64,000 nt of DNA from a virus. The translations under genes were made by a program, and so were the position numbers. This document shows, in pieces, positions 10,417 through 64,000 of this stretch. Each line of letters opens with the position of its first letter. Position 1 is the stretch's first letter. The notes under the pieces are model-generated. The model worked only from the letters and a program-made list of their open reading frames with translations. It was not told where the DNA came from and made no database searches. The stretch is from IMG/VR virus record IMGVR_UViG_3300036768_001340, positions 1 to 64,000 of that record, one strand, 5' to 3'.

Positions 10417-12399
10417 TTAACTAGAGCTGCCCGAAAGAAGCTCGGCGAGGACGGCAACCCGAGTCTTAAGTGGCTGAACATCCTCAGCTGCCTCGGCAAG
10501 ACGCTGGGCGCTATCGATCGCAGGTCGGACAGTAATGATCTCCTGCGGATTGATCGAATTAACCGCCGTCGTGGTAAATTCTACCAAGGACGCCGAACTA
10601 ATCGGGATGACCGGAACTGCAAATTGATTGTTGAGGAGCCATCCCGGAGTAGTCCCCGAGATGTCAGCAAGGGACCCAGAGAGCCTGTAATAGAGCGCGA
10701 AGTCAGCGTTCTCGGCCGAGCCTGTCAGAAGGGTGATCCCGATGGTCCGACCGATCTCAGGCCAGACCTGATCATCGGCCAGATACGTGTCGCTGGTGTG
10801 CGCATCCCAGCTGCCGGTCATACCAGTCAAAAAATCACTACCTGAGATGGTCAGGATAAGGACCTCGGAACGAGCCCTCCGAGCACGGACCCTGGACTGC
10901 CTCCGTAAGGTAAACTCCGACTCGCTGCCCGAGGCGAGGATGAACTCAAGACGGACCTGTTGGAAATACGTCGGAGTATAGGTGCCATTAGTTCCTGACA
11001 AAGTAAAGCGATTATCTCCGATCATGAGGTACCATGTCCCGCTTGCCTCGGTCCCACGAAGCCCAGGACGAAATCCGGTCCACCGTCCGGGATCGAATAG
11101 GGCCGAACCAGTGGTCAACCTCACAGGAATATCCCCGTACCTCTTTCTCTGATAGAGAGGGTCGAGCAGCGGATACAGGGGCCGAAGCTGCTCAGCTCCG
11201 TAGTTTACTCCTGTCGTCGGCCACTCGTCGATCAGGTTGGTGCCCCCAGGGCCGTTCAACCAACCCTTAGGAGGAGAGCCGGCCATCTGATACGTGTTTG
11301 CCCCCGAGATCTCTGCCGCAGACGTCCACGGGACGTCAAAGCCGAACGCACTATTGAATCCGAAGTACGAATTCGGAGCTCCGTTATAGCTTCCAGACGA
11401 ACCACCAGGAACGGCATGCCTCGGATTCGGGATGGCCGCCCCGTCTGAAAAGACGGTCCGCATCGAACGATCTCGCTGCCATGATGGATATCGTCTTGTA
11501 AGCGTGTGATTGTCAGCATCCCACGGACCATAAGATGTCTTTTCGAATAGACCTGGACCTTCCCAGAGGATGAAGGAATCGCGATAAAACGGTGAGATAT
11601 AATCCGGTCCAAAAAGAGAACGACCGATTGGATCATGATCGCTCACCGCAGTAAATTCTGCCAAATCTGAGGTGAAGACCTTCTTAAGGATCGGATCGTT
11701 CCTGATCGGATGAGCGTGGAACCCGCTAAGGTTCGGGGACCTGATGGCGATCGCCAGGTTTCCTAGTGGATATCTTCCAGCACCGTCAACACTCGACGAT
11801 CCCGAGACCTGCATCAGCTCGATCCAGACCTTAAGGTCGACGATCCTCCCGCGGTGTGGGACCTCGACCGGGATCACGGCAGGAAACTTGATACTAGATC
11901 CAATCAATGAATAATTAAATATTGATGTGTAGGCCACCGTGCCGGTCACGCTCGTGACGTCGGTCCCTTTCCCCGGGACGTAATAGACCGGAGTGGCGCC
12001 GTCCATACCCGCGGGAAGACGTATCAGATCTTTGACGGACGCCGTCTTCTTCACGATGACGTGCCGGTACCTGCCGTGCTTCGAGTAGTACATCGAGGCG
12101 CTGGCCGGCACCGCCGTGGTCTCGAGCGGTTCCGACCCGCTCCTCCAAAGGTTCAGGGACGTGACCTCGTGATCGCTCGAGCTAAGCACGGTGGTCACGT
12201 ACGATGAATTCCTAAAGTTAACCGATGAAACGGACGGAAGCCGATATGAACCGCTCCGATCCGTCAAGAACCTCTCAACGCTGCCGGTGATAGTCGTGAC
12301 CTCGATCTCTCCGCCGAGAAATCCGGCGTCAGGACCCTGGACGTGCCTGCGGTCGAACCGCATGCCGGGACGATGAGAGTATTCCTTACGACGCTTCAC
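10417..12399 (-). CDS. Structural protein with P-domain-like beta sandwich
   Basis: 660 aa. Around residues 175-250 the pattern PHRGRIVDLKVWIEL followed by LGNLAIAIRSP, and around 440-500 the pattern SGTWYLMIGDNRF then QQVRLEF, resemble the proprotein-convertase P-domain (a jelly roll seen next to subtilases and in adhesins), here with a large insertion. No protease triad is visible, so this is not a protease. Ends with a helical tail (SAQRLAEAAEDVQPLKTRVAVL). It overlaps the downstream LamG gene's start codon. The P-domain reading is tentative. Confidence 0.6.
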   Translation of the reverse strand: MKRRKEYSHRPGMRFDRRHVQGPDAGFLGGEIEVTTITGSVERFLTDRSGSYRLPSVSSVNFRNSSYVTTVLSSSDHEVTSLNLWRSGSEPLETTAVPASASMYYSKHGRYRHVIVKKTASVKDLIRLPAGMDGATPVYYVPGKGTDVTSVTGTVAYTSIFNYSLIGSSIKFPAVIPVEVPHRGRIVDLKVWIELMQVSGSSSVDGAGRYPLGNLAIAIRSPNLSGFHAHPIRNDPILKKVFTSDLAEFTAVSDHDPIGRSLFGPDYISPFYRDSFILWEGPGLFEKTSYGPWDADNHTLTRRYPSWQRDRSMRTVFSDGAAIPNPRHAVPGGSSGSYNGAPNSYFGFNSAFGFDVPWTSAAEISGANTYQMAGSPPKGWLNGPGGTNLIDEWPTTGVNYGAEQLRPLYPLLDPLYQRKRYGDIPVRLTTGSALFDPGRWTGFRPGLRGTEASGTWYLMIGDNRFTLSGTNGTYTPTYFQQVRLEFILASGSESEFTLRRQSRVRARRARSEVLILTISGSDFLTGMTGSWDAHTSDTYLADDQVWPEIGRTIGITLLTGSAENADFALYYRLSGSLADISGTTPGWLLNNQFAVPVIPISSASLVEFTTTAVNSINPQEIITVRPAIDSAQRLAEAAEDVQPLKTRVAVLAELLSGSSS

Positions 12400-23562: not shown

Positions 23563-23867
23563 CAGTTCGATCCCTCATCAAAGTCTTCCTCAGGGAAGGG
23601 TCTTCCGATCTCATCAGTGATGTCATCTTCATCATCATCTGACAATACTTCAAGGACCTTACCGAAGGCCTTGACGGTATTCACCCGAACCTGATTTTGG
23701 CGACTTAATTCGGCAGCAATCTTGGCCACATACTCAGCGATTACAGCAGGTTGGTCACTGTGCTCCGAAAGAAGCCTGTCAAGGAAGTTTGACAGACGTT
23801 CTCGGTCTTCACCGACGTTATCGAGGATATCATCGACCAGGTCTGCAAGTTCATCCTTCTTCCCCAC
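23562..23867 (-). CDS. Small acidic protein, unknown
   Basis: 101 aa, acidic and helical: DELADLVDDILDNVGEDRER near the N-terminus, LEVLSDDDEDDITDEIG near the C-terminus. It overlaps the 3' end of the sigma-like gene by 17 bp and couples to the next small gene by TGATG. No family recognised. Its location directly behind the late sigma factor would suit a co-regulator, comparable in position only to small transcription co-factors in T4-like phages; this is speculation. Confidence 0.5.
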   Translation of the reverse strand: MGKKDELADLVDDILDNVGEDRERLSNFLDRLLSEHSDQPAVIAEYVAKIAAELSRQNQVRVNTVKAFGKVLEVLSDDDEDDITDEIGRPFPEEDFDEGSN

Positions 23868-24528
23868 TGTGGAACCTCTCCCTGAAGGCAGCGTACAACA
23901 TCTTCAACCGATTCATGTTGAGGTTGACCTGCTTCGTGGTCAGACCCGTCATCTCTTTGATATAGAGGAAGACCGCCTTCTTGTTAAAGATAGAGACCAG
24001 GTGAGGATTCTGCAAGAGGAAAACGATGGCGTCAAGCACCCGCCGCTCCTGGTCCTTCTTTAGGGACCCGCGCCACTTATCCATGTCACGGTGAAGCTCA
24101 ACCCAAAACTCCCTCTCGATGACCTCGTCCTCATAAGATTGGAGAACGATTGACGGATCGTTCTTGACCCGATCGTGATCGATGCCATAGAAGTTCTCAG
24201 ACTGCTGTTTGAGCTTCTTATTCTTGTCTCTGATCTTCCAGATGAACCAGTTCTTGACCACCACGTTGAAGTACGAGAATGCCTTCTTTCCCTTCGACGG
24301 ATCGAACTTAGGAAGGGTCTCATATAGCGTGGCCAGGCACTCGTTCTTGAGCGTGTCCGGATCATCAATCTTATAGAAGCCGTACAGGTACATCTGACTC
24401 TCGATAAGCTTGAGCATCGCAGGGCGAATATGCTCCTCAAAGATCTTGTTTCGCTTATCGATGTCAGGCTCGCTGTGGTACTCAGCGATCTTTTCATCGA
24501 CCTGCGGGCCGAAGTACATCGACATCAT
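23851..24528 (-). CDS. Late-transcription sigma factor, T4 gp55-like
   Basis: 225 aa. The central region, IESQMYLYGFYKIDD through ECLATLYETLPKFDPSKG and KAFSYFNVVVKNWFIWKIRD, is the region-2 pattern (core binding and -10 recognition) of gp55-type late sigma factors. The C-terminus (VFLYIKEMTGLTTKQVNLNMNRLK) looks like a helix-turn-helix. gp55 directs host RNA polymerase to late promoters with a sliding-clamp co-activator. It lies at the head of the tail gene block it would be expected to activate. Confidence 0.85.
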   Translation of the reverse strand: MMSMYFGPQVDEKIAEYHSEPDIDKRNKIFEEHIRPAMLKLIESQMYLYGFYKIDDPDTLKNECLATLYETLPKFDPSKGKKAFSYFNVVVKNWFIWKIRDKNKKLKQQSENFYGIDHDRVKNDPSIVLQSYEDEVIEREFWVELHRDMDKWRGSLKKDQERRVLDAIVFLLQNPHLVSIFNKKAVFLYIKEMTGLTTKQVNLNMNRLKMLYAAFRERFHSGEEG

Positions 24529-44880: not shown

Positions 44881-44908
44881 ACACGCGCTCTTATAGAAGA
44901 CTGAAAGG

Positions 44909-45052
44909 ATTAACTTAAATAATTGAATTAACTTAAATAATTAAATTAACTTAAATAATTGAATTAATTTAAATAATTAAATTAACTTAAATAATTAAAT
45001 TAACTTAAATAATTAAATTAACTTAAATAATTAAATTAACTTAAATAATTAA
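44909..45052. repeat. Eight tandem 18-bp AT-rich repeats
   Basis: Eight head-to-tail copies of ATTAACTTAAATAATTRA with only one to three substitutions, followed by another AT-rich stretch to about 45085. The array starts about 40 bp upstream of the first gene of the left operon. The 18-bp unit is highly unlike the GC-rich surroundings. Candidate roles: replication origin iterons, DNA-unwinding region, or an upstream activating region for late transcription. All six reading frames are closed or non-coding. Confidence 0.95.
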
Positions 45053-45150
45053 ATTAATTATAATATATATATTAAATATATAGACTATTAGTTAGTAACA
45101 GAGGATATGCGGTGTGACCAATTTTCTGTGGTCTGCTTGTGATCTAATGC

Positions 45151-46866: not shown

Positions 46867-46936
46867 AAGTCGTGTCGAGGTTGAGCACAATAATAACGCA
46901 GCAAAATGAGCATTTGCCGCTGAAGTGGCCTAATCG

Positions 46937-47022
46937 TGCTTCCGCAGAGAGTCGAACTCTGACCGGGCGCCCATCTGGCCACGGGGTATAAACCCGCCTG
47001 CTCTACCGAGAGCTACGGAAGC
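46937..47022 (-). tRNA. tRNA-Ile(TAT) with long variable region
   Basis: Perfect acceptor GCTTCCG/CGGAAGC; D arm GCTC-TCGGTA-GAGC; anticodon arm GCGGG-TTTATAC-CCCGT with TAT; T arm CAGAG-TTCGACT-CTCTG. The variable region is 19 nt (with GGC/GCC ends), unusual for isoleucine, which normally has a short one. Discriminator A, CCA not encoded. Confidence 0.75.
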
Positions 47023-47149
47023 TTTAGATTTGTCCTTAAGCGATTATTCCGTATGATTTGATACAAATCGTATATCTTAAGCAACATTCCGTATCATACC
47101 ATCTGCTGCCTCAACCAAGATCATCGCGTTCTTTCGGTTTGCTCAGAAG

Positions 47150-47223
47150 TGGTCGGTGTGCGCTCGGAGTTCGAACCGCCTGGCGGTCTCGAGTATCATG
47201 CTACCTCCCCGCTGGGAACACCG
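47150..47223 (-). tRNA. Degenerate tRNA-like sequence
   Basis: Acceptor CGGTGT/ACACCG, discriminator A and encoded CCA at the 3' end, plus GGTTCGAAC in the T region. The T stem is not regular (CGG/CCG with bulges) and no anticodon arm with T33 can be drawn. The core includes the palindromic ACCGCCAGGCGGT. Best read as a decayed or highly unusual tRNA. Confidence 0.3.
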
Positions 47224-47248
47224 GTAAACTGTATTGTGCGTTCGTTAG

Positions 47249-47316
47249 CACACTGTCTGAGAATCGAACTCAGGAAGGGAGGATTTGGAGTCCTCCCAGG
47301 GCCCAGCCCCCGGTGT
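47249..47316 (-). tRNA. tRNA-Trp(CCA)
   Basis: Anticodon arm GAGGA-CTCCAAA-TCCTC is perfect with anticodon CCA, T33 and A37. T arm CTGAG-TTCGATT-CTCAG is perfect. Acceptor ACACCGG/ACAGTGT pairs at five of seven positions. The D arm is short (GGGC...GCCC with a 3-nt loop), giving a compact 68-nt gene. CCA is not encoded. Confidence 0.7.
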
Positions 47317-47319
47317 ATA

Positions 47320-47395
47320 TGGTCGAGATGGCAGGAATCGAACCTGCTGCCTCACGCTCCCAAAGCGTGCGCCTCACCATGTCGGCCTCATCTCG
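47320..47395 (-). tRNA. tRNA-Pro(TGG)
   Basis: Acceptor CGAGATG/CATCTCG, D stem GCC/GGC, anticodon arm CACGC-TTTGGGA-GCGTG with TGG, T arm GCAGG-TTCGATT-CCTGC, discriminator A, encoded CCA. A normal tRNA throughout. Confidence 0.93.
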
Positions 47396-47522
47396 TTGAG
47401 GGTTTGGAAATCTTTCTCTGAAGTCTCCGCCTTGAAAACATCATCATCATCAGCAGATGGGAAATATGAGTGGTAGCGGATTATGATCTGTCAACTGTTT
47501 GGTACACATTATTAAGAGTTAG

Positions 47523-47592
47523 AGCCCGTAGTGGGTACGAATCCACAACCTCCTGGGTACAAGCCAGGGCTCTACTTTTGAGCTATACGGGC
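47523..47592 (-). tRNA. tRNA-Thr(TGT)
   Basis: Acceptor GCCCGTA/TACGGGC, D arm GCTC-AAAAGTA-GAGC, anticodon arm CCTGG-CTTGTAC-CCAGG with TGT. T stem GTGG/CCAC with a loop containing TTCGTA and one mismatch. Discriminator T; CCA not encoded. Confidence 0.88.
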
Positions 47593-47598
47593 GTTAAG

Positions 47599-47683
47599 TG
47601 GGTCTGGCAGGACTCGAACCTGCATATGGACGCAATGTCCCCCGATTAAAAGTCGGGTGGTCAGCCTTTGACACCACAGACCC
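47599..47683 (-). tRNA. tRNA-Lys(TTT) with long variable arm
   Basis: Acceptor GGGTCTG/CAGACCC, T arm GCAGG-TTCGAGT-CCTGC, anticodon arm CCCGA-CTTTTAA-TCGGG with TTT. The variable arm GGAC-ATTGC-GTCC plus four bases is class II in style, unusual for lysine. A shifted loop reading TAA (Leu) does not give a paired stem. Confidence 0.8.
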
Positions 47684-47701
47684 CTGGGATATTGACATCT
47701 G

Positions 47702-47783
47702 TACGTGGAGTGGGAGTCGAACCCACACGATGATCAATCGGGGAGGTTTAAGCTCCCCACGTCTACCGTTCCGTCATCCACGC
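47702..47783 (-). tRNA. tRNA-Leu(TAA)
   Basis: Acceptor GCGTGGA/TCCACGT, anticodon arm GGGAG-CTTAAAC-CTCCC with TAA, class II variable arm of 14 nt as expected for leucine, T arm GTGGG-TTCGACT-CCCAC. CCA not encoded. Confidence 0.92.
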
Positions 47784-47846
47784 GAAGAGGATAGAGATCA
47801 CCCTCTATAAAAGAGATGCACGGTCTATTCTATTTTCAAAGTTCTG

Positions 47847-47930
47847 CGGGTCGTTGAGGATTCGAACCTCTGACTTTCGTCCTAACCGATTTTCAAGACC
47901 GGCGCTGGAACCCGTCCAGCTTAACGACCC
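47847..47930 (-). tRNA. tRNA-Ser(TGA)
   Basis: Acceptor GGGTCGT/ACGACCC, D arm with AGCTGG/CCAGC, anticodon arm CCGGT-CTTGAAA-ATCGG with TGA, class II variable arm, T arm AGAGG-TTCGAAT-CCTCA. Discriminator G as expected for serine. Confidence 0.92.
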
Positions 47931-52864: not shown

Positions 52865-53383
52865 CTAGAGGGATCCCGTTCCCAGGCCAGCAGACGTCCC
52901 TGGATGCTGCTGTCTCAGCAGCCTAACCTTTCCGTCACCCGGGACGATCCAGGCGACAAGAGAAGGGATGTCCTGTCTCTGCGCCTGACGATATGTCCTT
53001 AGACGATGGTGTCCGTCCCAGACGGTGAACTGTTCACCCAGACGCTTCAACACCACGGGGACAGCGTCGTACCCGGGATCTCTTTCGAGCTGGGCCCTCA
53101 GCTGAGGATAGCCCTTGGCCGCCCGCGCTTCCCTCTCGGGGTTGGTGACCGAGATCTCGCAAAGGGGGACGCGGCCGAAGTAGATGACGCAGTCGGCCCT
53201 GCACTCAGACCACTTGATCTGTCCTCCTTTCGTCAGGGCGCCCTCGACGCGGGCCACCATGAACTCGGAGATCTCAACGAGGTGGCCCCGATACGAGTCT
53301 GGCCATGTCGGAGTGCAGAGCTTTGCGATGTGTGGGACGGCGAGCCGACGCCACTCCCGGTCTGACCCAGGAGACCAGCTCAT
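52865..53383 (-). CDS. ParB/Srx-like domain protein
   Basis: 172 aa. VPVVLKRLGEQFTVWDGHHR and LRTYRQAQRQDIPSLVAWIV match the ParB/sulfiredoxin-type nucleotide-binding fold (family IxDGxHRxxA). This fold serves DNA partition and nucleotidyl or kinase-like reactions. No helix-turn-helix is visible after it, so partition is unlikely; unassigned enzyme is more likely. The start overlaps the stop of the gene upstream by 4 bp. Confidence 0.6.
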   Translation of the reverse strand: MSWSPGSDREWRRLAVPHIAKLCTPTWPDSYRGHLVEISEFMVARVEGALTKGGQIKWSECRADCVIYFGRVPLCEISVTNPEREARAAKGYPQLRAQLERDPGYDAVPVVLKRLGEQFTVWDGHHRLRTYRQAQRQDIPSLVAWIVPGDGKVRLLRQQHPGTSAGLGTGSL

Positions 53384-54486
53384 CGTCCTCGTCTGAAGAA
53401 CTTCGTGAGCGGACTCTTCGGGGCCGCCGGGGTCGCCTGCGGTCTGATGAAGTTTGCGGCGCCGGCCTGCCGCTTGGTCGGTTCCTCGATGTCTTCCTCG
53501 TCGTCGTCTTCTGGCTCGGGCCGCGCCGTCGCCGCCGGCGGCTCTTCCTTCTTTCGGACTGTCACGCCGGGCCCGGCCGATGGGGTGACGGGCTTGGAGA
53601 AGGACGGAGGGGCGATGGTTCTCTTCACAGGGGGCGAGGGCGGCTCCTCCTCGTCGTACTCGTCGTCCGAAGTCGCCTCGGGCTCCTCCTCGTCGTACTC
53701 GTCGTCCGAAGTCGCCTCGGACTCCTCCTCGTCGTACTCTTCGTCTGGAATCGTGTCCAGGTCCTCGGGCTCGTCTGAGAACTCGCCGACGTCATCGTCG
53801 TCGTCATGGGAAGAGACGGCCGGGGGCGCCGGGGCGACCTGGTCCTCTGCGTCTTCGACGTCGTCCTCGTCAGCCGCGCCCCGATCGATGAGGAACTCGG
53901 AGGCGATATGGAGGGCGTCCATCTGCCCAGCCTTCGGGATCGTCCCCCTGATGTCGGCCACGACCTGGTTCAGGGTCTTCATCTTCTTCCAGCGCTCGAT
54001 GGCGGCCTTGAGCCTCTGTCGTCCCTGCTTCGGGTCGTCCGGGAGACCCTTGCCCATGCGGCTCAGGACCTTCTCGAGTCGATCCATCGCGTCTCCGGTG
54101 CTGCTGTCGTCGTCGGGCTCCACGAAGTGGGCTGCGCTAGGATCGCGAAGTGGCCTGTCGAGCCCCCATTGAAGGATGGTCGGGTTGCGGCCGCCCCCTC
54201 CGCGCGCTCCTCGCCTCACGGCCAGGAGCGGCCTCTTCTCAGAGACACCGTACTTGTCCTGGTCCTCCTTCCACGGCTTGGCGATGTACCTGTTGATCTG
54301 CGTCGAAAACGACTGCTTGTTGTCGCCCATGCTGTTGGCCCGGCCCCCGTTTGCGACGTAGACGTTGTACAGGTCGTTGATCGTGAAGGTGCCCCTCTGT
54401 TGGGCAGCCCAGTCGAGGGTCGCCAGGATGGGATCCCCCTTCCTCCTGGGCATCTCGAACATGAAGTACTCGTAGAGACGCGGCAT
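53380..54486 (-). CDS. Acidic tandem-repeat protein with N-terminal winged-helix-like part
   Basis: 368 aa from ATG at 54486 (TTG at 54495 is an alternative). Residues ~1-120 are a possible winged helix (ILATLDWAAQQRGTFTINDL and SFSTQINRYI). Later there are tandem 14-residue acidic units: EEYDEEESEATSDD, DEYDEEEPEATSDD, DEYDEEEP, embedded in a long D/E-rich and P-rich stretch, ending in a basic TKFFRRGR. Low-complexity acidic tails commonly mimic DNA or hold partners. Function not assigned. Confidence 0.65.
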   Translation of the reverse strand: MPRLYEYFMFEMPRRKGDPILATLDWAAQQRGTFTINDLYNVYVANGGRANSMGDNKQSFSTQINRYIAKPWKEDQDKYGVSEKRPLLAVRRGARGGGGRNPTILQWGLDRPLRDPSAAHFVEPDDDSSTGDAMDRLEKVLSRMGKGLPDDPKQGRQRLKAAIERWKKMKTLNQVVADIRGTIPKAGQMDALHIASEFLIDRGAADEDDVEDAEDQVAPAPPAVSSHDDDDDVGEFSDEPEDLDTIPDEEYDEEESEATSDDEYDEEEPEATSDDEYDEEEPPSPPVKRTIAPPSFSKPVTPSAGPGVTVRKKEEPPAATARPEPEDDDEEDIEEPTKRQAGAANFIRPQATPAAPKSPLTKFFRRGR

Positions 54487-54515
54487 CGCCTTCAAAATTA
54501 GGCCGCGGAGGGAAC

Positions 54516-55034
54516 CTACTTCCAGGCGATCAGGTTTCCGTGGCCGTCCGGGAACTTAACCCCAAACGTCCGCGTCTGCCATCCGATGGATGCGAAGTCT
54601 TCGGGCACAGGACCCCAGTGGTGGAACTCCGGATCGTTCCGGTCCTCACCTTGCTCCTGGAACCCCCAGGGGCAGCTGATGAGGACCCGGGCGTTCCTCC
54701 TCGCCAGGTACCTGCAGAGCTCCAGCGACTCCTCCCGCGGCAGGTGCTCGGGCCCCTCATCCCAGAAGACGAGGCCGAACCCGTGGGGGACGTCGCTCTG
54801 GCGGATGTCCCCGTGGTAGAGCTCCGAGGTGACGTGTCGGGCCGTCAGCAGGTTATTCCTGTCGACGTCGATCACCGCGATGCGGGAGGCTCCGATCGCC
54901 GGGGCGAACGTCTGATACCACCATGGATGGGTATCCCTGCGGTGACCGACGTAGAGCATGGAGCCGACAGAGGTCCCGAAGATTCCAGGGCCCTCTTGGG
55001 CCAAGAAGCCAAACGCCTCTCCTACAGACGGCAC
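54516..55034 (-). CDS. Methyltransferase-like protein
   Basis: 172 aa from a GTG at 55034. Class I-like pieces: SMLYVGHRRDTH (motif I position), IAVIDVDRNNLL (acidic end of strand 2), LYHGDIRQSDVPHGFGLVF and WDEGPEHLPREESLELCRYL. The glycine-rich loop is weak (VGHR). The family assignment as SAM-binding is plausible but not firm. The 30-bp gap before 54486 contains no clear ribosome site. Confidence 0.55.
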   Translation of the reverse strand: MPSVGEAFGFLAQEGPGIFGTSVGSMLYVGHRRDTHPWWYQTFAPAIGASRIAVIDVDRNNLLTARHVTSELYHGDIRQSDVPHGFGLVFWDEGPEHLPREESLELCRYLARRNARVLISCPWGFQEQGEDRNDPEFHHWGPVPEDFASIGWQTRTFGVKFPDGHGNLIAWK

Positions 55035-57651: not shown

Positions 57652-57750
57652 AAGGCCGCCGCTCCTCGAGGCATGCCCAGACGTTTGCCTCAAGATGCCC
57701 CTTCCCAAGACACCTCCAAGGCAAGTCTTGTTCCAAGGCAAGGCACCTCC

Positions 57751-57900
57751 AAGGCACTCTTAAGGCACCAAGGTACCTCCAAGGCACTCTTAAGGCACCA
57801 AGGCACCTCCAAGGCACTCTTAAGGCACCAAGGTACCTCCAAGGCACTCTTAAGGCACCAAGGCACCTCCAAGGCACTCTTAAGGCACCAAGGCACTCCT
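57751..57900. repeat. Five tandem 30-bp repeats built from AAGGCAC heptads
   Basis: Each unit is three heptad-like pieces: AAGGCACTCTT, AAGGCACC, AAGGYACCTCC. The Y alternates T and C from unit to unit, so the real period is 60 bp. Partial copies precede it (57730-57750). The units are open in several frames and give shadow peptides on both strands; no ribosome site. The direct repeats CGAACCCTGGCGAAAA (57578, 57943) and TCTGGGATAAA (57642, 57925) bracket it. Probably a protein-binding array or expanded simple repeat. Confidence 0.85.
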
Positions 57901-58037
57901 AAGGTCCGTTCCAAGGCATCCGACTCTGGGATAAAGTGCCGTCGAACCCTGGCGAAAAATGGGCCCCGGCTCGCGAGATGGCCAAGCGCCGCAATTTTAA
58001 TTCTATTTTTCCTATGAACCCAATACTACTAATATTT

Positions 58038-58239
58038 ATAGTATATCAAATATAATTATTAGAATATATAATTCCAAAATATTTAGTATTATTTTTTACT
58101 ACTAATATTTATAGTATATCAAATATAATTATTAGAATATATTATTACCCAATAATTAATTGGGGCCTTAAAGGTATATACTATAAATAATTTATAGTAT
58201 ATCATTTAAGGTAAATAGAATATATTATTACCCAATAAT
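58038..58239. repeat. AT-rich island with three copies of a bipartite element
   Basis: Three copies of ATAGTATATC then, always 22 nt from its first base, TAGAATATAT: 58038/58060, 58111/58133, 58194/58216. Copies two and three also share TATTACCCAATAAT after the box. A 27-nt inverted repeat (58176-58202) overlaps copy three. The island is about 200 bp of nearly pure A+T in a GC-rich region and is followed by the plus-strand gene at 58343. A fourth copy is at 63948. Confidence 0.9.
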
Positions 58240-58342
58240 AGGGAGGCGTCCGAGGCTCGACCTCCGCTTGGGTTGGTAGGCACGGTACCCGCACCCGTGG
58301 TGGGTACGGGGCCGGTCCTGCCAACAGAAGAAGGAGAGCCAG

Positions 58343-58858
58343 ATGTCGAACGTCCCTGCGTACCTCACCCTCGTCGCCCGCATCCTCGAGACCGCCGAGT
58401 CCCTCGGGTTGACCGTCGCCCGGGACCCGGGCACGGCCTCGACCCTCCCCGAGAACAAGGGGTTCGTCTTCGTGCGGGTCAACGGTGGCAACGCCGCCCT
58501 GATCGTCCCGAAGCACGCGGATCGGGTCAAGTGGGCCGACAGCCACCTCGATTGGACGGGGAGGGAGGGGTACCTCCCGCTGCCGCGCCCGAACGGGGCG
58601 GTGGTCTGCCGGATCGACCCGGAGCGGGTCGACCTCGAAGCCTTCCTCCAGGCGCTGGGCGGCGCCAGCAAGCGTGCCTCCAAGCGCGCCTCCCGGGACG
58701 CCTCCCAGGACGCCTCCCAGGAGTCCCTCGACGCCCTCAAGGCCAAGCTCCTGGCGCTCGGGCAGCCGAAGGCCCAGCCCGCCTCCCAGGAGTCCTTTGA
58801 GGAGATCGTCCGCCCGACGGATGAGGACCTCCCGGACGGGTTCTTCGAGCAGGCCTGA
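58343..58858 (+). CDS. Protein of unknown function with degenerate repeat region
   Basis: 171 aa. AGAAGGAGAGCC is a strong ribosome site. The N-terminal ~105 residues form a compact domain (LTLVARILETAESLGLTV, ENKGFVFVRVNGGNAALIV, LDWTGREGYLPLP). After it a short K/R/A/S-rich repetitive stretch (ASKRASKRASRDASQDASQE), then an acidic end. No family recognised. First gene after the AT-rich island. Confidence 0.6.
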   Translation: MSNVPAYLTLVARILETAESLGLTVARDPGTASTLPENKGFVFVRVNGGNAALIVPKHADRVKWADSHLDWTGREGYLPLPRPNGAVVCRIDPERVDLEAFLQALGGASKRASKRASRDASQDASQESLDALKAKLLALGQPKAQPASQESFEEIVRPTDEDLPDGFFEQA

Positions 58859-58939
58859 GCGGCCGCCTCGCGGGGCCCGACCGGTCTGAGGAGGCGACGC
58901 CTCGTGGCCCGCCCCTTGTCCGCCCGGGTCCCCGACCCA

Positions 58940-58991
58940 TCGACCGTCTCCGGAGAGACCTTGGTCCCGGGTTCGACTCCCGGGCGGTCGA
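58940..58991 (+). ncRNA. tRNA-like minihelix without anticodon or D arm
   Basis: Perfect 7-bp acceptor-like stem TCGACCG (58940-58946) with CGGTCGA (58985-58991), enclosing a hairpin GTCTC-CGGA-GAGAC and a T-arm-like hairpin CCCGGG-TTCGACT-CCCGGG. Total 52 nt. No anticodon arm fits. It may be a remnant of an att/tRNA site, a minihelix recognised by processing enzymes, or chance in a GC-rich intergenic region. The T-loop match is exact. Confidence 0.45.
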
Positions 58992-59029
58992 CCGCCGCCG
59001 TGATGTGCGGCAGGAAAGGAGAGAGCGCG

Positions 59030-59188
59030 ATGAAGAGCTTCGTGATCGTCCACCAGAACGATGCCCGGGTCGTCGGGCCGTTCGCCTCCGCCGAGGCCGC
59101 CGAGGACTGGGCCCGGCGGACCCCAAACGTCCTCTTCGGCTCCGAGGAGGAGCTGGAGCACGTCTCTGAGCTGGAGGGAGTCCGATGA
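59030..59188 (+). CDS. Small protein, unknown
   Basis: 52 aa with AAAGGAGAGAGCGCG before ATG. KSFVIVHQNDARVVGPFASA followed by EDWARRTPNVLFGSEEELEH, a small alpha/beta fold. Ends in an ATGA overlap with the next gene. No family recognised. Confidence 0.6.
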   Translation: MKSFVIVHQNDARVVGPFASAEAAEDWARRTPNVLFGSEEELEHVSELEGVR

Positions 59189-59340
59189 GCTGGTACTGGT
59201 TCTACGCCCTGGTGATCGCCCTGAGCCTGGCCGGGGCCTTCCAGGCGATCCTGCTCATCCTCTACGGCGTCTACCTCCTCCTCCGGCTGCCGTTCGAGCT
59301 CTGGGCGATCGACCGGGAGCTCAAGCGGAACAACGACTGA
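59185..59340 (+). CDS. Small membrane protein
   Basis: 51 aa. One long hydrophobic stretch (FYALVIALSLAGAFQAILLI) continues into a second part (YGVYLLLRLPFELW), then a charged tail (AIDRELKRNND). Coupled to the upstream gene as ATGA. Probably a single- or double-span membrane peptide. No family recognised. Confidence 0.6.
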   Translation: MSWYWFYALVIALSLAGAFQAILLILYGVYLLLRLPFELWAIDRELKRNND

Positions 59341-59353
59341 GGAGGGAGACGCC

Positions 59354-59431
59354 ATGGCGACCGTGCTTGGGATCCTCCTGCTCGGGCTGGCCCTGGTCGG
59401 CTGGACCGCCGACCGGCTCGAGCGTGACTGA
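59354..59431 (+). CDS. Tiny membrane peptide
   Basis: 25 aa, hydrophobic (ATVLGILLLGLALVGWTADR then LERD). A GGAGGGAGACGCC ribosome site precedes the ATG. Position in a chain of small genes and the strong ribosome site are the only support. Confidence 0.45.
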   Translation: MATVLGILLLGLALVGWTADRLERD

Positions 59432-59515
59432 CCGGGGCTCGTCCGTGACCGGATGTCCGCGGCAAGACCGCGGGCACCCGCTGGCGGGACGAGCCCGTCA
59501 AGAAAGGAACGAACC

Positions 59516-60016
59516 GTGTTGATCACAGCCAAGCAATTCCGTCTGTGGGGTGGAGTTGACCTGCCGGAGATGGCCCCGGCCACGCTGGCGGCCCGCCAGG
59601 ACATCCCGCTCAGCGACCGCGTGTGGTTCCTCGTCCATACGCTCTGGCACCTGGACGAGGACGCCACCCGCCGGTATGCCCGAGAGACGGCGCTCGCCGT
59701 CGCCCGGCTGATGGACGACGACGTCTGGACCTCCATGGTCCAGGAGGCGTGCGCGGACATCCCGTCCGCGGCATCCGCCTGGGCCGCGGTGATGGTCACC
59801 GCGGACGCGAGCGCCATCCTGACCGCGGCCGCCGTCATCCCGGGCGACCTCCACGCGTACGGCTGCGCCCTGGAGGAGGCCATCGCCCAGGCCCGGCCGC
59901 CCGGGACGGAGACCGTGCACTCCTCGGCCGAGGACCCCGTGTACGTCGTCGCCCTGGAGCGGGCGCTCCGCCGGGCGCTCACGCTCCTCGACGCCGTCGA
60001 GACCGCCCGGTCCTGA
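59516..60016 (+). CDS. Paralogue family protein A, unknown
   Basis: 166 aa from GTG, with AAAGGA upstream. Shares LSDRVWFLVHTLWHLDEDAT and ETALAVARLMDDDV with the gene at 62230-62853 (INDRLWVIGRTLVHLDERAA, ETALTVARLACDV). A helical, alanine-rich protein of unknown role. The paralogue pair flanks several other small genes, suggesting local duplication. Confidence 0.6.
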   Translation: MLITAKQFRLWGGVDLPEMAPATLAARQDIPLSDRVWFLVHTLWHLDEDATRRYARETALAVARLMDDDVWTSMVQEACADIPSAASAWAAVMVTADASAILTAAAVIPGDLHAYGCALEEAIAQARPPGTETVHSSAEDPVYVVALERALRRALTLLDAVETARS

Positions 60017-60530
60017 AGAGAGGGCGGGCCTGGGGCATCCGGCCAAGGCGCAGATCAAGTCCGAGGCGCAACCGTGACCCGCCGGGCCCCTCCCTCAGAA
60101 GCCATGGGGGGACGAGGAGAGAGAGAGGACGGCGTGGCGGACGTCGGAGTCGTGCCCAAGGCTCGGAGCGCAGCCGGGGCGGGACGCGGCCTGAGGTGCC
60201 GGGCACCCTCGACGGCGAAGATCATGACCCCGACCCACCGGGCCGACCCCAGAAGAGAGGGGGCCTCCCCCGACCTGCGGTATGCTGGCGCAGCTCGGGG
60301 CGCAACCCGCCCCCGGACACCTCTGGCGATGAGTCGGGCGCCCGGCCATGGTCTCGCCATGACCCGCCGGGCCAACCCTCCTCAGAGGACAGGGCTGAAG
60401 AGAGAGGGTGTGAGACGGCCCTGAAGAGAGGGAGGGAGCCTTTCCGTCCCCCGCCCCGTCGGGCCCCGTGGTATGATGGCCGGAGGCCCGCCCCCGAGGC
60501 GCAAGGCGCGGGTCACGGAGGAGACACGGC
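60017..60530. other. Non-coding stretch with degenerate GA-rich repeats
   Basis: No gene with a ribosome site and conserved coding pattern is supported here. Visible: four copies of C(N)GAAGAGAGGG-like sequence, three degenerate copies of CCCGCCGGGCC/CCACCGGGCC (near 60076, 60231 and 60361), and two boxes resembling GGTATGCTGG and TGGTATGATGG without start codons behind them. A 116-aa open frame at 60074 reflects these repeats. Confidence 0.5.
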
Positions 60531-60730
60531 TCAAGACACGGGCCAAGGCGTAGCTCGAGACACGTCCGAGGCACGGCTCGAGACGCAGCTTAAGGCGCAG
60601 TTGAGGTACAGGCCAAGATACGGGTCATGGCGTCGCTCGAGACACGTCCGAGACACGCAGCTTAAGGCACAGTTGAGGCACGGGTTGAGGGTACGTCCGA
60701 GGTGCGAGTTGAGGCACGATTCGAGGGCGC
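60531..60730. repeat. Degenerate 11-12-bp repeat array, RAGRYRC heptad
   Basis: About 17 copies of a heptad close to GAGGCAC/AAGGCAC/GAGACAC, spaced about every 11-12 bp, joined by short linkers CTC, CTT, TTG, TCC. The same AAGGCAC heptad makes up the 57751-57900 array. No reading frame is convincing on either strand. Confidence 0.7.
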
Positions 60731-60758
60731 GGACGTTGCCAAAAAAGTCATAGATTCC

Positions 60759-60829
60759 AGGCGCTTGCGCCTTCCCTTCAAGGGCGGTTGCCGGAAACCT
60801 CAGGTGCCTAAGACTCCTGGGGTTTCCGG
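60759..60829. other. Intergenic hairpins before 60920
   Basis: Hairpin A: AGGCGC-TT-GCGCCT (60759-60772). Hairpin B: CCGGAAACC paired with GGTTTCCGG (60791-60799 with 60821-60829) and an inner CAGG/CCTG (60801-60804 with 60816-60819). Perfect 9-bp outer stem. Could be a terminator or a 5' leader structure; no U-run follows. Confidence 0.55.
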
Positions 60830-60919
60830 GAGTCGCTCCGTCGATTCCCCGGGGCCATGGTGGTCCCCGGCTCGGTCCCGCCGTGCCTCCCGCGCGCGCG
60901 TGGACAGGAGGATCCTCCG

Positions 60920-61066
60920 ATGTCGCAACCGTCCCGTCTCCGGCCGGCGGGCCGCCGCCCCGTCCAGGCACGACAGTCCATCGACCTGAACCTGGCCGAA
61001 CGCGGCCGAGGCGGCGATCGCCTCCGGACGAGGCCGGGCGCCCGCCGAGTTGCTGGCGAGGGTTAG
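60920..61066 (+). pseudogene. Small gene with apparent frameshift
   Basis: ATG with a strong AGGAGG ribosome site 12 nt upstream opens a 48-codon frame (MSQPSRLRPAGRRPVQ through SIDLNLAERG). From about 61010 the coding-like pattern (high GC at third positions, helix EAAIASGRGRAPAELLARVR) moves to the +1 frame, which is open until it joins the frame of 61140-61469. A one-base indel would restore one reading frame. Either a broken gene, a frameshifting event, or two overlapping small genes. Confidence 0.4.
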
Positions 61067-61139
61067 GGCCAGCGCGTCCGCGATGGATGAGATGGTTTCC
61101 TCCGTCGCGGGGTCCCTCAGGTACCAACGAAAGGAGCCG

Positions 61140-61469
61140 ATGATGACAGCCGAGATGGTGCCCGCCACGTTGACCGTCCCGGACGGCCGCCGGATCGACC
61201 GCCTGCTGGCGGCGGCCGGCCTCCGTTCCTCGCCGGTCGGTCCCCGTTACGACCCGTATATGTGCGAGACCGCCGACTTCGCCGTCACCGCCGCCCTGGC
61301 CCGCCTCCTCATGCGGAAGGGCCTCCTCCGGGACGGCCAGGAGGTCCGGGTCGTCGGCCCCCAGCACGTCACCTCCTACTTCATCACCGTCGCCCGGGCG
61401 TGGGAGTCCGCCCGGTACCGGGCGGGCCACGGCGCCCGCCGCTGGACGATCCGTCGCATCACCCTGTGA
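61140..61469 (+). CDS. Small protein, unknown
   Basis: 109 aa from ATG at 61140 with AAAGGAGCCG upstream. LTVPDGRRIDRLLAAAGL, then ETADFAVTAALARLLMRKGL and VTSYFITVARAWESARY suggest a compact alpha/beta domain. It may be a continuation of the frameshifted upstream gene, as its frame is open further upstream. No family recognised. Confidence 0.55.
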   Translation: MMTAEMVPATLTVPDGRRIDRLLAAAGLRSSPVGPRYDPYMCETADFAVTAALARLLMRKGLLRDGQEVRVVGPQHVTSYFITVARAWESARYRAGHGARRWTIRRITL

Positions 61470-61507
61470 TCGGCCGGGCCCCAGGCCCGGCGGAAAGGAG
61501 AGAGAGC

Positions 61508-61942
61508 ATGACCGAGAGCATGGATGAGGATGTCACCGAGCTCGCCGCGGCGGTCGAACGCTGCCTCGGCCGGACGATCGCCGAGGCCACCCTCGGGTAC
61601 CATCCGGGGGAGCCCCCGGGGCAGTCGCTCCGGCTGCTGTTCGAGGGCGGCGGCGAGCTTCACCTCTACGACGAGCTGCGGCTCTGCTGCGAGTCCCGGT
61701 TCATGACCTGCGACGACGACCTCCCCTCGATCCGAGGGGGCCGGCTGGTCGGGGTCTCCGTCCGCGACGGAGGAAGCCGGGCCGAGGAGGACGACCTGTA
61801 CGAGGACGTCCGGTTCCTCGTCGTCAGGACGACCCGAGGAGACGTCACCGTGGCGACCCACAACCGCCACAACGGGTACTACGGCGGGTTCGAGCTCCGG
61901 GCCCGGGCCGTCCTCCCGTCCGCCGAAGGAGGGCGACGATGA
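61508..61942 (+). CDS. DUF7448-like small protein
   Basis: 144 aa with AAAGGAGAGAGAGC before ATG. Visible pieces: LRLLFEGGGELHLYDELRLC, FLVVRTTRGDVTVATHNRHN and GYYGGFELRARAV; the last two resemble a small phage domain labelled DUF7448 in databases, but I recall this pattern rather than compare it. Acidic middle. Coupled to the next gene by ATGA. Confidence 0.5.
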   Translation: MTESMDEDVTELAAAVERCLGRTIAEATLGYHPGEPPGQSLRLLFEGGGELHLYDELRLCCESRFMTCDDDLPSIRGGRLVGVSVRDGGSRAEEDDLYEDVRFLVVRTTRGDVTVATHNRHNGYYGGFELRARAVLPSAEGGRR

Positions 61943-62133
61943 AGACGATGGACGTCCGCGAGCAGGGGTCCATCGCCCTGCTCTGCGAGCAGGCGGACCG
62001 GTCGCTCCGCGGTTGGTGGCTCGAGCTGGAGAGGGTCCTCCGCCCGGAGATCATGACGGACCTCCGCGTCGTCCTCGACGCCCTCCAGGAGATCGAGGCG
62101 ATCGTCGTCCGGCCGGAGGATCCGGCTCGCTGA
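61939..62133 (+). CDS. Small helical protein, unknown
   Basis: 64 aa, overlapping the upstream stop as ATGA. One long helix pair (IALLCEQADRSLRGWWLELE, MTDLRVVLDALQEIEAIVV). No family recognised. Typical of small phage regulators in size only. Confidence 0.5.
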   Translation: MKTMDVREQGSIALLCEQADRSLRGWWLELERVLRPEIMTDLRVVLDALQEIEAIVVRPEDPAR

Positions 62134-62229
62134 CCGGCCGCCCGCGCCGTCCCCGTCGATCCGGGACCGGGAGGTTGACGACCTCCCCGGCGCCCCACGT
62201 CCCGCCTCGGGACGGAAAGGAGAGAGAGC

Positions 62230-62853
62230 ATGATCACGCCCAAGCTGCTTCGTTCGTGGAACGCCGACGCCCGGCTCGTCCAGGCCCTCGGCGCCGAGGA
62301 GCTGTCGCCCCGGGAGCTGGTGACCCGGGAGGACATCTCCATCAACGACCGCCTGTGGGTCATCGGCCGGACGCTCGTGCACCTCGATGAGCGGGCGGCC
62401 GGGTCGTTCGCGGTCGAGACGGCCCTCACGGTCGCCCGCCTCGCCTGCGACGTCGAGGACGAGGCGCTCTTCCGCGGCCTGATGAACGACCTGCTGGCCA
62501 CGGAGGAACCGGTCGACGCCCGGAACGTCGCCTGGGCCGACGTCGCCTGGGATGTTGCCTTGGACGTTTCCCGAAGCACCGCGGCGCTCGCCGCCTGGGC
62601 CGCGGCGTGTTCCGCCGCCCAGGCCGTCGCCTGGGCCACCCGGCGGGACTTTGCCCGGAACGTCGTCGCCCGGCACGTCGTGACGAACGCCGTCTGCGAC
62701 GTCGTCTGGGACGCCGCTCGGGCCGTCGCCTGGGCGGCCAGCGACGGGACCGTCGCCTGGAACGTCCCGTGGAACTCCGCGTGGCTCGCCGAGGTCCGGC
62801 TCTCGCTCTCCCGGGCGCTGGAGTGGCTCGGCGACTGGGCCGACGGGTGGTAA
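62230..62853 (+). CDS. Paralogue family protein B, W/A-rich repeats
   Basis: 207 aa with GAAAGGAGAGAGAGC before ATG. The first ~85 residues are homologous to the 59516-60016 gene. The remainder is W/A-rich with repeating VAWADVAWDVALDV, LAAWAAACSAAQAVAWA, AVAWAASDGTVAWNV and similar units of about 8-10 residues, which the paralogue lacks. Probably a helical, extended structure. Function unknown. Confidence 0.6.
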   Translation: MITPKLLRSWNADARLVQALGAEELSPRELVTREDISINDRLWVIGRTLVHLDERAAGSFAVETALTVARLACDVEDEALFRGLMNDLLATEEPVDARNVAWADVAWDVALDVSRSTAALAAWAAACSAAQAVAWATRRDFARNVVARHVVTNAVCDVVWDAARAVAWAASDGTVAWNVPWNSAWLAEVRLSLSRALEWLGDWADGW

Positions 62854-62880
62854 CGCTGAGATCAACCGGAGGATTGGACG

Positions 62881-63201
62881 ATGACGACATGGCTCATGAA
62901 CTCTGCGGTCATTCCCGAGGGCTGTCACGGCTCGTACACGTTCGAGCCGGCGACCGTCGACGAGCTCAAGCGGATCGTCCGGCACGCCGAGTCGCGGATC
63001 GGCTACGAGGCGACGGCCGCGCAGATCGAGCGGTGGACCGGGTACCGGCCCGAGGTCCGCCGCGACTCGTGCACGCTCGCGGTCGGCGACGTGGCCTACG
63101 TCGTCCGACTCCGCTATCGGATCCAAGATCCGAGGAAGAAGCACTTCCAACGGCCCGCCGAGTCTCAGTTCGAGATCGGCAAGCTGACGAGGGTTGCGTG
63201 A
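62881..63201 (+). CDS. DUF1874 / AcrIII-1 ring-nuclease family protein, catalytic His replaced by Tyr
   Basis: 106 aa. The DUF1874 pattern is clear from end to end: NSAVIPEGCHGSYTFEP, ESRIGYEATAAQIERWTGY, DSCTLAVGDVAYVVRLRYRI and a final FEIGKLTRVA. Family members (SIRV1 gp29 / AcrIII-1, YddF) bind or cleave cyclic tetra-adenylate and so block type III CRISPR signalling; the conserved SxIGHxxT histidine is catalytic. Here it is IGYEAT (Tyr42), so it may only bind the ring or act differently. Family call firm by pattern; activity inferred. Confidence 0.8.
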   Translation: MTTWLMNSAVIPEGCHGSYTFEPATVDELKRIVRHAESRIGYEATAAQIERWTGYRPEVRRDSCTLAVGDVAYVVRLRYRIQDPRKKHFQRPAESQFEIGKLTRVA

Positions 63202-63261
63202 CGCTCGCCGCGTCGATCCCATGCCGGGAGGGCTGACCTCCCAAGGAAGGAAGGAATCAAG

Positions 63262-63444
63262 ATGAGGATGATCGTGTTGACGTTGCTGGCCGGCTGCCTC
63301 GACCGCCGGGTCGAGCTGCCGACATGCGAGGAGCTCGGGTGCGATGGCACCCCCGAGCGGCCCGCCGAGGACGACGGACCGCCCGTGGACGGAGCGTGCT
63401 TCTGCCCGGCCCCTGCCGGGTCGGACGGGAGGTGTGTGCCATGA
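63262..63444 (+). CDS. Small secreted lipoprotein
   Basis: 60 aa. MRMIVLTLLAGC is a short signal with a lipobox (LLAGC), and the mature part is acidic and cysteine-containing (CEELGCDGT, ACFCPAPAGSDGRC). AAGGAAGGAATCAAG precedes the ATG. The stop overlaps the start of the metzincin lipoprotein gene (ATGA), so they are probably co-expressed. Confidence 0.65.
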   Translation: MRMIVLTLLAGCLDRRVELPTCEELGCDGTPERPAEDDGPPVDGACFCPAPAGSDGRCVP

Positions 63445-63911
63445 CCCGGCTTGCCCTCCTCGCCCTGGCCCTCTCGGGATGCGTTGTGGATCCGGAGCCG
63501 TGGGGCCGGACCGCCCTGACGGTCCACGGGGACGTCGAGTTCGTGTCCGCGGCCATCGAGGCCGCCTTCGTCTGGGACGCGGCGCTCTACGACCGCTGCG
63601 GCCAGGTGTTCTGGATCGTAGAGGACGGCGGTCGTCCGGTCCGACAGTACTCCGTCGAGCGGTGGAAGGAGGATGGGTACGAGGGGAAGTATATGGGCTG
63701 GTTCGACGGAGACGAGGTCGCCGTCCGTGACACCGACTTCCGGGCCGAACGGCAGATCGTGGTCCACGAGCTGGGCCACGCCCTCGGCCTGGGCCACGTG
63801 AGTCGGGCCGACGACCCCAGGAGCGTGATGTTCGAGGTGGCGGCCGCGCAGTTCTACATCCCGACGGCCGGTGACGTGGAGCGGGCGGCGGCGGCCCTCG
63901 GGTGCCCCTAG
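63441..63911 (+). CDS. Metzincin-like lipoprotein peptidase
   Basis: 156 aa. Signal MTRLALLALALSGC with a lipobox (LSGC). The zinc motif HELGHALGLGH (HExxHxxGxxH) and the Met-turn SVMFEV identify a matrixin-type metzincin. It would act outside the membrane or in the periplasm, perhaps on a host envelope or surface protein. Coupled to the upstream lipoprotein. Catalytic family is firm; substrate unknown. Confidence 0.8.
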   Translation: MTRLALLALALSGCVVDPEPWGRTALTVHGDVEFVSAAIEAAFVWDAALYDRCGQVFWIVEDGGRPVRQYSVERWKEDGYEGKYMGWFDGDEVAVRDTDFRAERQIVVHELGHALGLGHVSRADDPRSVMFEVAAAQFYIPTAGDVERAAAALGCP

Positions 63912-63947
63912 AGGGCGCCGGCCTAAGCAGCGGATTTCAAGGTTTTT

Positions 63948-63983
63948 ATAGTATATCTAAATTATTATTTAGAATATATTATA
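63948..63983. repeat. Fourth copy of the bipartite AT-rich element
   Basis: ATAGTATATC at 63948 and TAGAATATAT at 63970, same 22-nt offset as the three copies at 58 kb. Followed by an AT-rich tail reaching the window end. Directly after the stop of the metzincin gene. Confidence 0.85.
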
Positions 63984-64000
63984 ATTTTATAATAACCAAA

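What the first reader, a model, noticed from the sequence alone, without database searches (positions are those of the whole stretch)
58038..63983. Four copies of a bipartite AT-rich element with an exact 22-nt offset
ATAGTATATC and TAGAATATAT recur at 58038, 58111, 58194 and 63948, always 22 nt between first bases, with variable sequence between. Constant spacing close to two helix turns suggests two protein contacts on one DNA face, as in a promoter for a dedicated polymerase, a regulator site, or an origin. They lie only in non-coding AT-rich islands between GC-rich genes.
Basis: seen in the sequence. Interest (0 to 1): 0.8.

Follow-up and report, generated by a model that had tools for sequence, protein, structure and literature searches.

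The report
Phage promoter array in AT-rich islands
A T4-like soil phage and a distant cousin carry the same three-part AT-rich DNA signal, which looks like a strong switch (promoter) for turning on blocks of small phage genes and is not a promoter type I could match to a known one.

Summary
ATAGTATATC-N12-TAGAATATAT occurs exactly four times, all on the + strand, in two non-coding AT-rich islands; shuffles give 0.

The record is a 68-kb fragment of a T4-like phage with a gp55-type late sigma factor. A 185-kb relative (G003) has three diverged copies, in the same register and the same kind of place. The seven copies align without gaps and add a third block, xATAAT, 18 nt after the start of box 2. 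Box 1 and box 2 are direct repeats (TRGWAT) exactly 21 bp apart. Over 2.9 million viral contigs the three-part pattern hits only G003.

The islands are syntenic. In three phages, two or three tandem units precede the same gene. The last -10-like hexamer ends 103-107 nt before the start codon in four of five islands, including one in G004, whose unit sequence differs.

Best reading: tandem phage promoters with a -10 (xATAAT), no recognisable -35, and a protein contacting two same-face repeats near -30 and -51. Promoter function is well supported. The activator is inferred; a winged-helix-like neighbour protein is a weak candidate. No MotA, AraC-type regulator or second sigma factor was found. 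An origin is less likely, and a conserved RNA hairpin is not supported.

The parts
57987..58255 (+). AT-rich island 1 (78% AT in about 65% GC surroundings), three tandem copies of the element, non-coding
   Evidence: syntenic islands in G003 (177673-177847) and G004 (11554-11781, - strand)
58038..58047 (+). copy 1 box 1 (ATAGTATATC; repeat core TAGTATAT 58039-58046)
58060..58069 (+). copy 1 box 2 (TAGAATATAT), direct repeat of box 1 at 21 bp
58078..58083 (+). copy 1 third block (AATATT, the weakest, 4 of 6 to TATAAT)
   Evidence: sequence
58111..58120 (+). copy 2 box 1
58133..58142 (+). copy 2 box 2
58151..58156 (+). copy 2 third block AATAAT (-10-like)
58176..58188 (-). inverted copy of the box 1 sequence (ATATACTATAAAT), arm of a palindrome with copy 3
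   Evidence: I5
58194..58203 (+). copy 3 box 1
58216..58225 (+). copy 3 box 2
58234..58239 (+). copy 3 third block AATAAT (-10-like), ends 103 nt before ATG 58343
58343..58858 (+). gene downstream of island 1 (171 aa, function unknown), orthologous genes downstream of the islands of G003 (30%) and G004 (42%)
63920..64000 (+). AT-rich island 2 (runs on to 64025 in the record), one copy; precedes the gene at record position 64205-64465
63948..63957 (+). copy 4 box 1
63970..63979 (+). copy 4 box 2
63988..63993 (+). copy 4 third block TATAAT (-10-like), 211 nt before ATG 64205
53380..54495 (-). candidate trans-acting protein: N-terminal winged-helix-like domain, acidic tail; relatives at the same place in G003 and G004
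   Evidence: low-confidence model with H-S-H-H-S-wing-S topology; best folds mostly winged helices, none significant. Role inferred only
23851..24528 (-). gp55-like late sigma factor (PHROG 234), identifies the phage type

Best explanation
The elements are promoters of a T4-like phage, used as a tandem array (three copies, then one) to start transcription of rightward blocks of small, GC-rich genes. Each unit has three parts: two direct repeats of TRGWATWT exactly 21 bp apart (two helix turns, one face) and, 18 nt after the start of the second, a -10-like hexamer xATAAT. The transcription start would lie just downstream, about 95-100 nt before the first gene. A canonical -35 is missing, so I infer that host RNA polymerase is placed by its sigma region 2 on xATAAT and by a protein bound to the two repeats (near -30 and -51), probably phage-encoded. 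Shown: the parts, their spacing, conservation in a relative, orientation, non-coding context, syntenic placement and constant leader length. Inferred: promoter activity, which block is the -10, the activator, and the time class (early or middle).
For: Seven copies in two phages align without a gap over 50 columns. The three-part pattern fits all G003 copies and G000 copies 2-4, with no hit on the other strand or in the other relatives, including AT-rich G001 (the pattern was drawn from these copies). In IMG/VR it hits only G003, two copies; with the last gap one base longer it hits nothing (a mis-typed pattern that serves as a control). Repeat offset 21: 48/56 identical against at most 31/56. 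All copies point at a downstream gene. In three phages the islands hold 2-3 tandem units before orthologous genes. The last xATAAT ends 103, 107, 103 and 107 nt before the start codon in G000 island 1, G003 islands 1 and 2, and G004, although the G004 unit differs. No TTGACA-like -35 lies upstream of xATAAT in the window copies (sequence).
Against: No transcript data. Copy 1 has a poor third block (AATATT), and G000 island 2 has a 211-nt leader. Only 3 elements were found in the 185-kb relative, so this is not the promoter of most phage genes. Only two phages carry the sequence; G004 has another one. An alternative sigma reading exists (box 1 = -35, box 2 = TAGAAT = -10, 16-bp spacer; one search scores one G003 copy 9 of 12). 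No trans-acting factor is identified with confidence.
Confidence: 0.6

Rival explanations
1. A promoter, but read differently: box 1 is the -35 and box 2 (TRGAAT) the -10 of a sigma factor, with a 16-bp spacer. This gives the 22-nt offset directly, and xATAAT lies in the transcribed region.
For: A start-to-start distance of 22 equals 6+16. TAGAAT matches TATAAT in 5 of 6. One G003 copy is called by the sigma-70 scan (TTGGTA-16-TAGAAT).
Against: Two of three G003 copies have TGGAAT, lacking the critical A at position 2. The window -35 would be ATAGTA (2 of 6). It does not explain why xATAAT and its distance to the gene are kept, nor why both boxes are the same repeat.
Confidence: 0.17
2. A replication origin or replication-control region: iteron-like 21-bp direct repeats in an AT-rich unwinding region.
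For: AT-rich islands, direct repeats two turns apart, tandem arrays, 30-bp tandem repeats just left of island 1 (57739-57904). T4 origins use promoters, so both readings could hold (own knowledge).
Against: A single copy at a second locus about 6 kb on in both phages, always before a gene and in the same orientation. A fixed distance to the start codon. No initiator gene recognised. The GC-skew extremes do not fall on the islands (G003: 65,979 and 130,727; G000: 56,020 and 5,809).
Confidence: 0.1
3. Operator sites of a repressor or another DNA-binding protein (including a partition or nucleoid protein) that acts beside an undetected promoter.
For: Direct and inverted repeats of the box (I5; G003 ATGGAAT-TTC-ATTCCAT) are typical of regulator sites.
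Against: The -10-like block keeps exact register with the boxes in both phages, which an independent operator would not need.
Confidence: 0.1
4. A transcribed RNA hairpin with box 1 pairing box 2.
For: Copy 4 folds well (z -3.4) and the window boxes are partly complementary.
Against: The other three window copies fold no better than shuffles. G003 copies 1 and 3 do not form the stem. 68% of cells paired and no excess of compensatory changes.
Confidence: 0.03

Closest known systems
T4 middle promoters (MotA box + -10, sigma appropriation)
   Same: -10-like hexamer, no recognisable -35, a conserved phage-type box near -30, T4-like phage
   Different: Box sequence is TTRGAATWTA, not wwwTGCTTtA; it ends 9 bp, not 12+/-1, before the -10 (PMC2988021); a second repeat lies 21 bp upstream; no MotA C-terminal domain match
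T4 early promoters (UP/-35/TGn/-10)
   Same: Strong-looking AT-rich phage promoter with multiple upstream contacts (PMC2988021)
   Different: No -35, no TGn before xATAAT; box 1 holds an invariant G and a mostly conserved C, unlike an UP element
T7 A1-A2-A3 tandem early promoters (own knowledge)
   Same: Several promoters in tandem ahead of a block of small genes
   Different: T7 promoters are canonical sigma-70 and are not built on 21-bp repeats
AraC/XylS-type activator sites at Pm
   Same: Two tandem direct repeats upstream of a -10, bound by two monomers (PMC5481539); the 21-bp spacing at Pm is own knowledge
   Different: Repeat sequence differs; no HTH_18 protein found in the phage records
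T4 late promoter (TATAAATA, gp55)
   Same: The phage encodes a gp55-like sigma; TATAAATA occurs inside island 1
   Different: TATAAATA is absent from G003 and G004 and is not the conserved part

Membership tests
T4 middle promoter | MotA box wwwTGCTTtA 12+/-1 bp upstream of the -10 | tested here: not met
   box 2 is TTRGAATWTA ending 9 bp before xATAAT (definition PMC2988021)
T4 middle promoter | MotA encoded by the phage | tested here: inconclusive
   PF09158 no match at E<=1, but the records may be fragments and no control genome exceeded the cut-off
T4 middle promoter | good -10 and no -35 | tested here: met
   xATAAT matches 4-6 of 6; the -35 hexamers at 17-bp spacing are ATTATT, ATTATT, GTAAAT, TTATTT, AAAATT, ATTATT, GTTTTT (sequence)
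T4 early (canonical sigma-70) promoter | -35 TTGACA-like 16-18 bp before the -10 | tested here: not met
   no + strand site called in the window islands; one G003 copy called with box 1 and box 2 as hexamers
T4 late promoter | TATAAATA at the -10 | tested here: not met
   absent from the conserved columns and from all of G003 and G004
Promoter of a phage-encoded single-subunit RNA polymerase | such a polymerase gene in the phage | tested here: inconclusive
   PF00940 found nowhere, but the control did not ring and the window record is a fragment
AraC/XylS-regulated promoter | AraC-type HTH_18 regulator | tested here: not met
   none in four phage records, control rang; a host regulator cannot be tested
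Iteron origin | repeats beside an initiator gene, replication starts there | not testable with these tools
   no initiator recognised; no replication data
Phage promoter in general | transcripts start there | not testable with these tools
   no RNA data; indirect evidence only

The most novel reading that the evidence does not exclude
A new phage transcription class: in this T4-like lineage a phage protein, perhaps the winged-helix-like protein encoded at 53380-54495, binds paired 21-bp repeats and recruits host polymerase to -35-less promoters. It would be a MotA-like solution evolved with unrelated parts, and protein and site would have changed together in the relative G004.
Probability: 0.22. 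Interest if true: 0.6.

Novelty: new variant of a known kind. Interest (0 to 1): 0.42.

Why it matters
If right, the element is a compact phage promoter with a strict three-part geometry, conserved between phages whose core genes are about two-thirds identical in DNA, and it does not match the T4 early, middle or late types. It would give a defined handle on how T4-like phages of high-GC soil bacteria take over host transcription, and the syntenic array with a changed sequence in G004 would let site and protein co-evolution be tested.

Tried and rejected
Chance: rejected. Wide distribution: exact two-box matches in five other viral contigs are single, inside long open frames of 24-35% GC DNA and without the third block. 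RNA hairpin: not conserved. T4 late promoter: not conserved. Known RNA family: none in the islands. Second sigma factor: only the gp55-like one. Further relatives: orthologues of 58343-58858 and of 54516-55034 led back only to G004 and G003; the gp55-like profile found nothing in genome contigs, so the host is unknown. Structure of the 58343 protein: model too poor to search (pLDDT 57). Structure of the candidate regulator: low confidence (53), Foldseek hits mostly winged helices but none significant. The claim that the G004 element is the same sequence was tested and rejected: it has a different unit (CATTATT...TATAATA).

Full report
Observation. The pattern ATAGTATATC-N12-TAGAATATAT is present exactly four times at the stated places, all on the + strand, with no other match at up to three mismatches in the window or in the whole 68,245-bp record, and none in 100 shuffles. 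Three copies lie in one AT-rich island (57987-58255) and one in a second island (63920-64025), the only such islands in the right part of the record. Copies 1 and 2 are a recent duplicate. Copies 3 and 4 share only the boxes: box letters 20 of 20 identical, spacers 2-6 of 12. Both islands are non-coding and precede + strand genes.

What carries it. The record is a viral contig. It encodes a gp55-like late sigma factor (PHROG 234) and a baseplate wedge protein, so it is a T4-like phage; the nearest isolated phages are distant (gp55-like protein 26-31% identical to Flavobacterium and Microcystis phages). Searching with the gp55-like protein gave four relatives at 75-77% protein identity: G001, G002, G003 (185 kb) and G004 (107 kb).

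Conservation. The literal 20-base motif is not in the relatives, but G003 has only two AT-rich islands, both in its GC-rich right end, and these hold three diverged copies. All seven copies align over 50 columns without a gap: TTaTrGtATwTCa, variable spacer, TrGAATwTAwTaT, six variable bases, xATAATa. A weight matrix scores the copies at 56-75 and everything else in five phage records at 7 or less; the matrix was built from these copies, so the gap matters more than the scores. The degenerate three-part pattern has exact matches in one contig of the 2.9-million-contig viral collection, G003, at two places; with one extra base in the last gap there is none. The search tool may leave out the window's own record.

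Anatomy. Two G positions, 21 bp apart, are invariant. Comparing box 1 with the sequence k bases further on gives 48 of 56 identical letters at k = 21 and at most 31 of 56 at any other offset from 14 to 29. The boxes are therefore direct repeats two helix turns apart, and the third block is a -10-like hexamer (4-6 matches of 6 to TATAAT). At 17-bp spacing from it there is no -35-like hexamer.

Setting. The gene after island 1 (58343-58858, unknown function) has orthologues directly after the islands of G003 (30%) and G004 (42%). The islands hold 3, 2 and 3 tandem units, spaced 66-87 bp. The G004 units are a different sequence (CATTATT...TATAATA), yet the distance from the end of the last xATAAT to the start codon is 103 (G000), 107 (G003) and 107 (G004), and 103 at the second G003 island; only G000 island 2 differs, with 211. 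This constant anchor, kept while the element sequence changed, is the best evidence that xATAAT is a promoter -10.

Mechanism. I conclude that these are tandem promoters for rightward blocks of small genes, with two same-face upstream contacts. That some kind of promoter sits here I hold at about 0.75-0.8; the specific reading with xATAAT as the -10 at about 0.6. The missing -35 suggests that a bound protein does the work of sigma region 4, as MotA does at T4 middle promoters (PMC2988021), but box sequence and spacing fail the MotA definition and no MotA domain was found. No AraC-type regulator and no second sigma factor were found. A weak candidate is the protein at 53380-54495. It is encoded close to island 1 in G000 and G003 and also near the G004 island, and its low-confidence model has winged-helix order of elements, with mostly winged-helix fold matches, none significant. 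That it binds the element is untested.

Rivals. A sigma factor reading box 1 as -35 and box 2 as -10 explains the 22-nt offset simply, but leaves xATAAT and the anchor distance unexplained and gives TGGAAT as the -10 in two G003 copies. An origin is possible but not favoured: single copy before a second operon, strict orientation, no initiator, skew extremes elsewhere. A conserved RNA hairpin is not supported.

Limits. Only two phages carry this sequence, all copies within each are related by descent, and no expression data exist. The host is unknown.

Noticed in passing
window 44881-45131: A further AT-rich island with eight copies of an 18-bp tandem repeat (ATTAACTTAAATAATTAA), at the head of the 45-kb minus-strand block; it does not hold the element and has no counterpart AT island in G003 or G004.
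   Followed up: partly
window 57739-57904: Five and a half copies of a 30-bp GC-rich tandem repeat (CAAGGCACCTCCAAGGCACTCTTAAGGCAC) immediately left of island 1.
   Followed up: no
L010 16010-16456 (record 66010-66456), G004 8051-8446: Phage-encoded RNase III-like protein (PF14622, 3e-30), with a relative in G004 but none found by tblastn in G003.
   Followed up: partly
L023 19150-20000, L024 405-480; window 59016, 61495, 62217: Right-arm genes have strong GC hairpins just before the ribosome-binding site. In G003 two leaders share CTCCGATCGG...CCGGACAGGAGCGA, with the stem base pairing the ribosome-binding site.
   Followed up: partly
L010 14112-14180 (record 64112-64180): tRNA-like remnant in the leader after island 2 (GCCACCG...GGTTCAAGCCCCGCCGGTGGCGCCA), not called by ARAGORN or Rfam.
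   Followed up: no
window 46936-47930: Seven tRNA genes (Ile-TAT, Trp, Pro, Thr, Lys, Leu, Ser) in a cluster on the minus strand.
   Followed up: no
window 22000-68245; G001 (L031-L033): GC jumps from about 52% to about 70% along the record, and relative G001 has 36% GC although its gp55-like protein is 77% identical.
   Followed up: no
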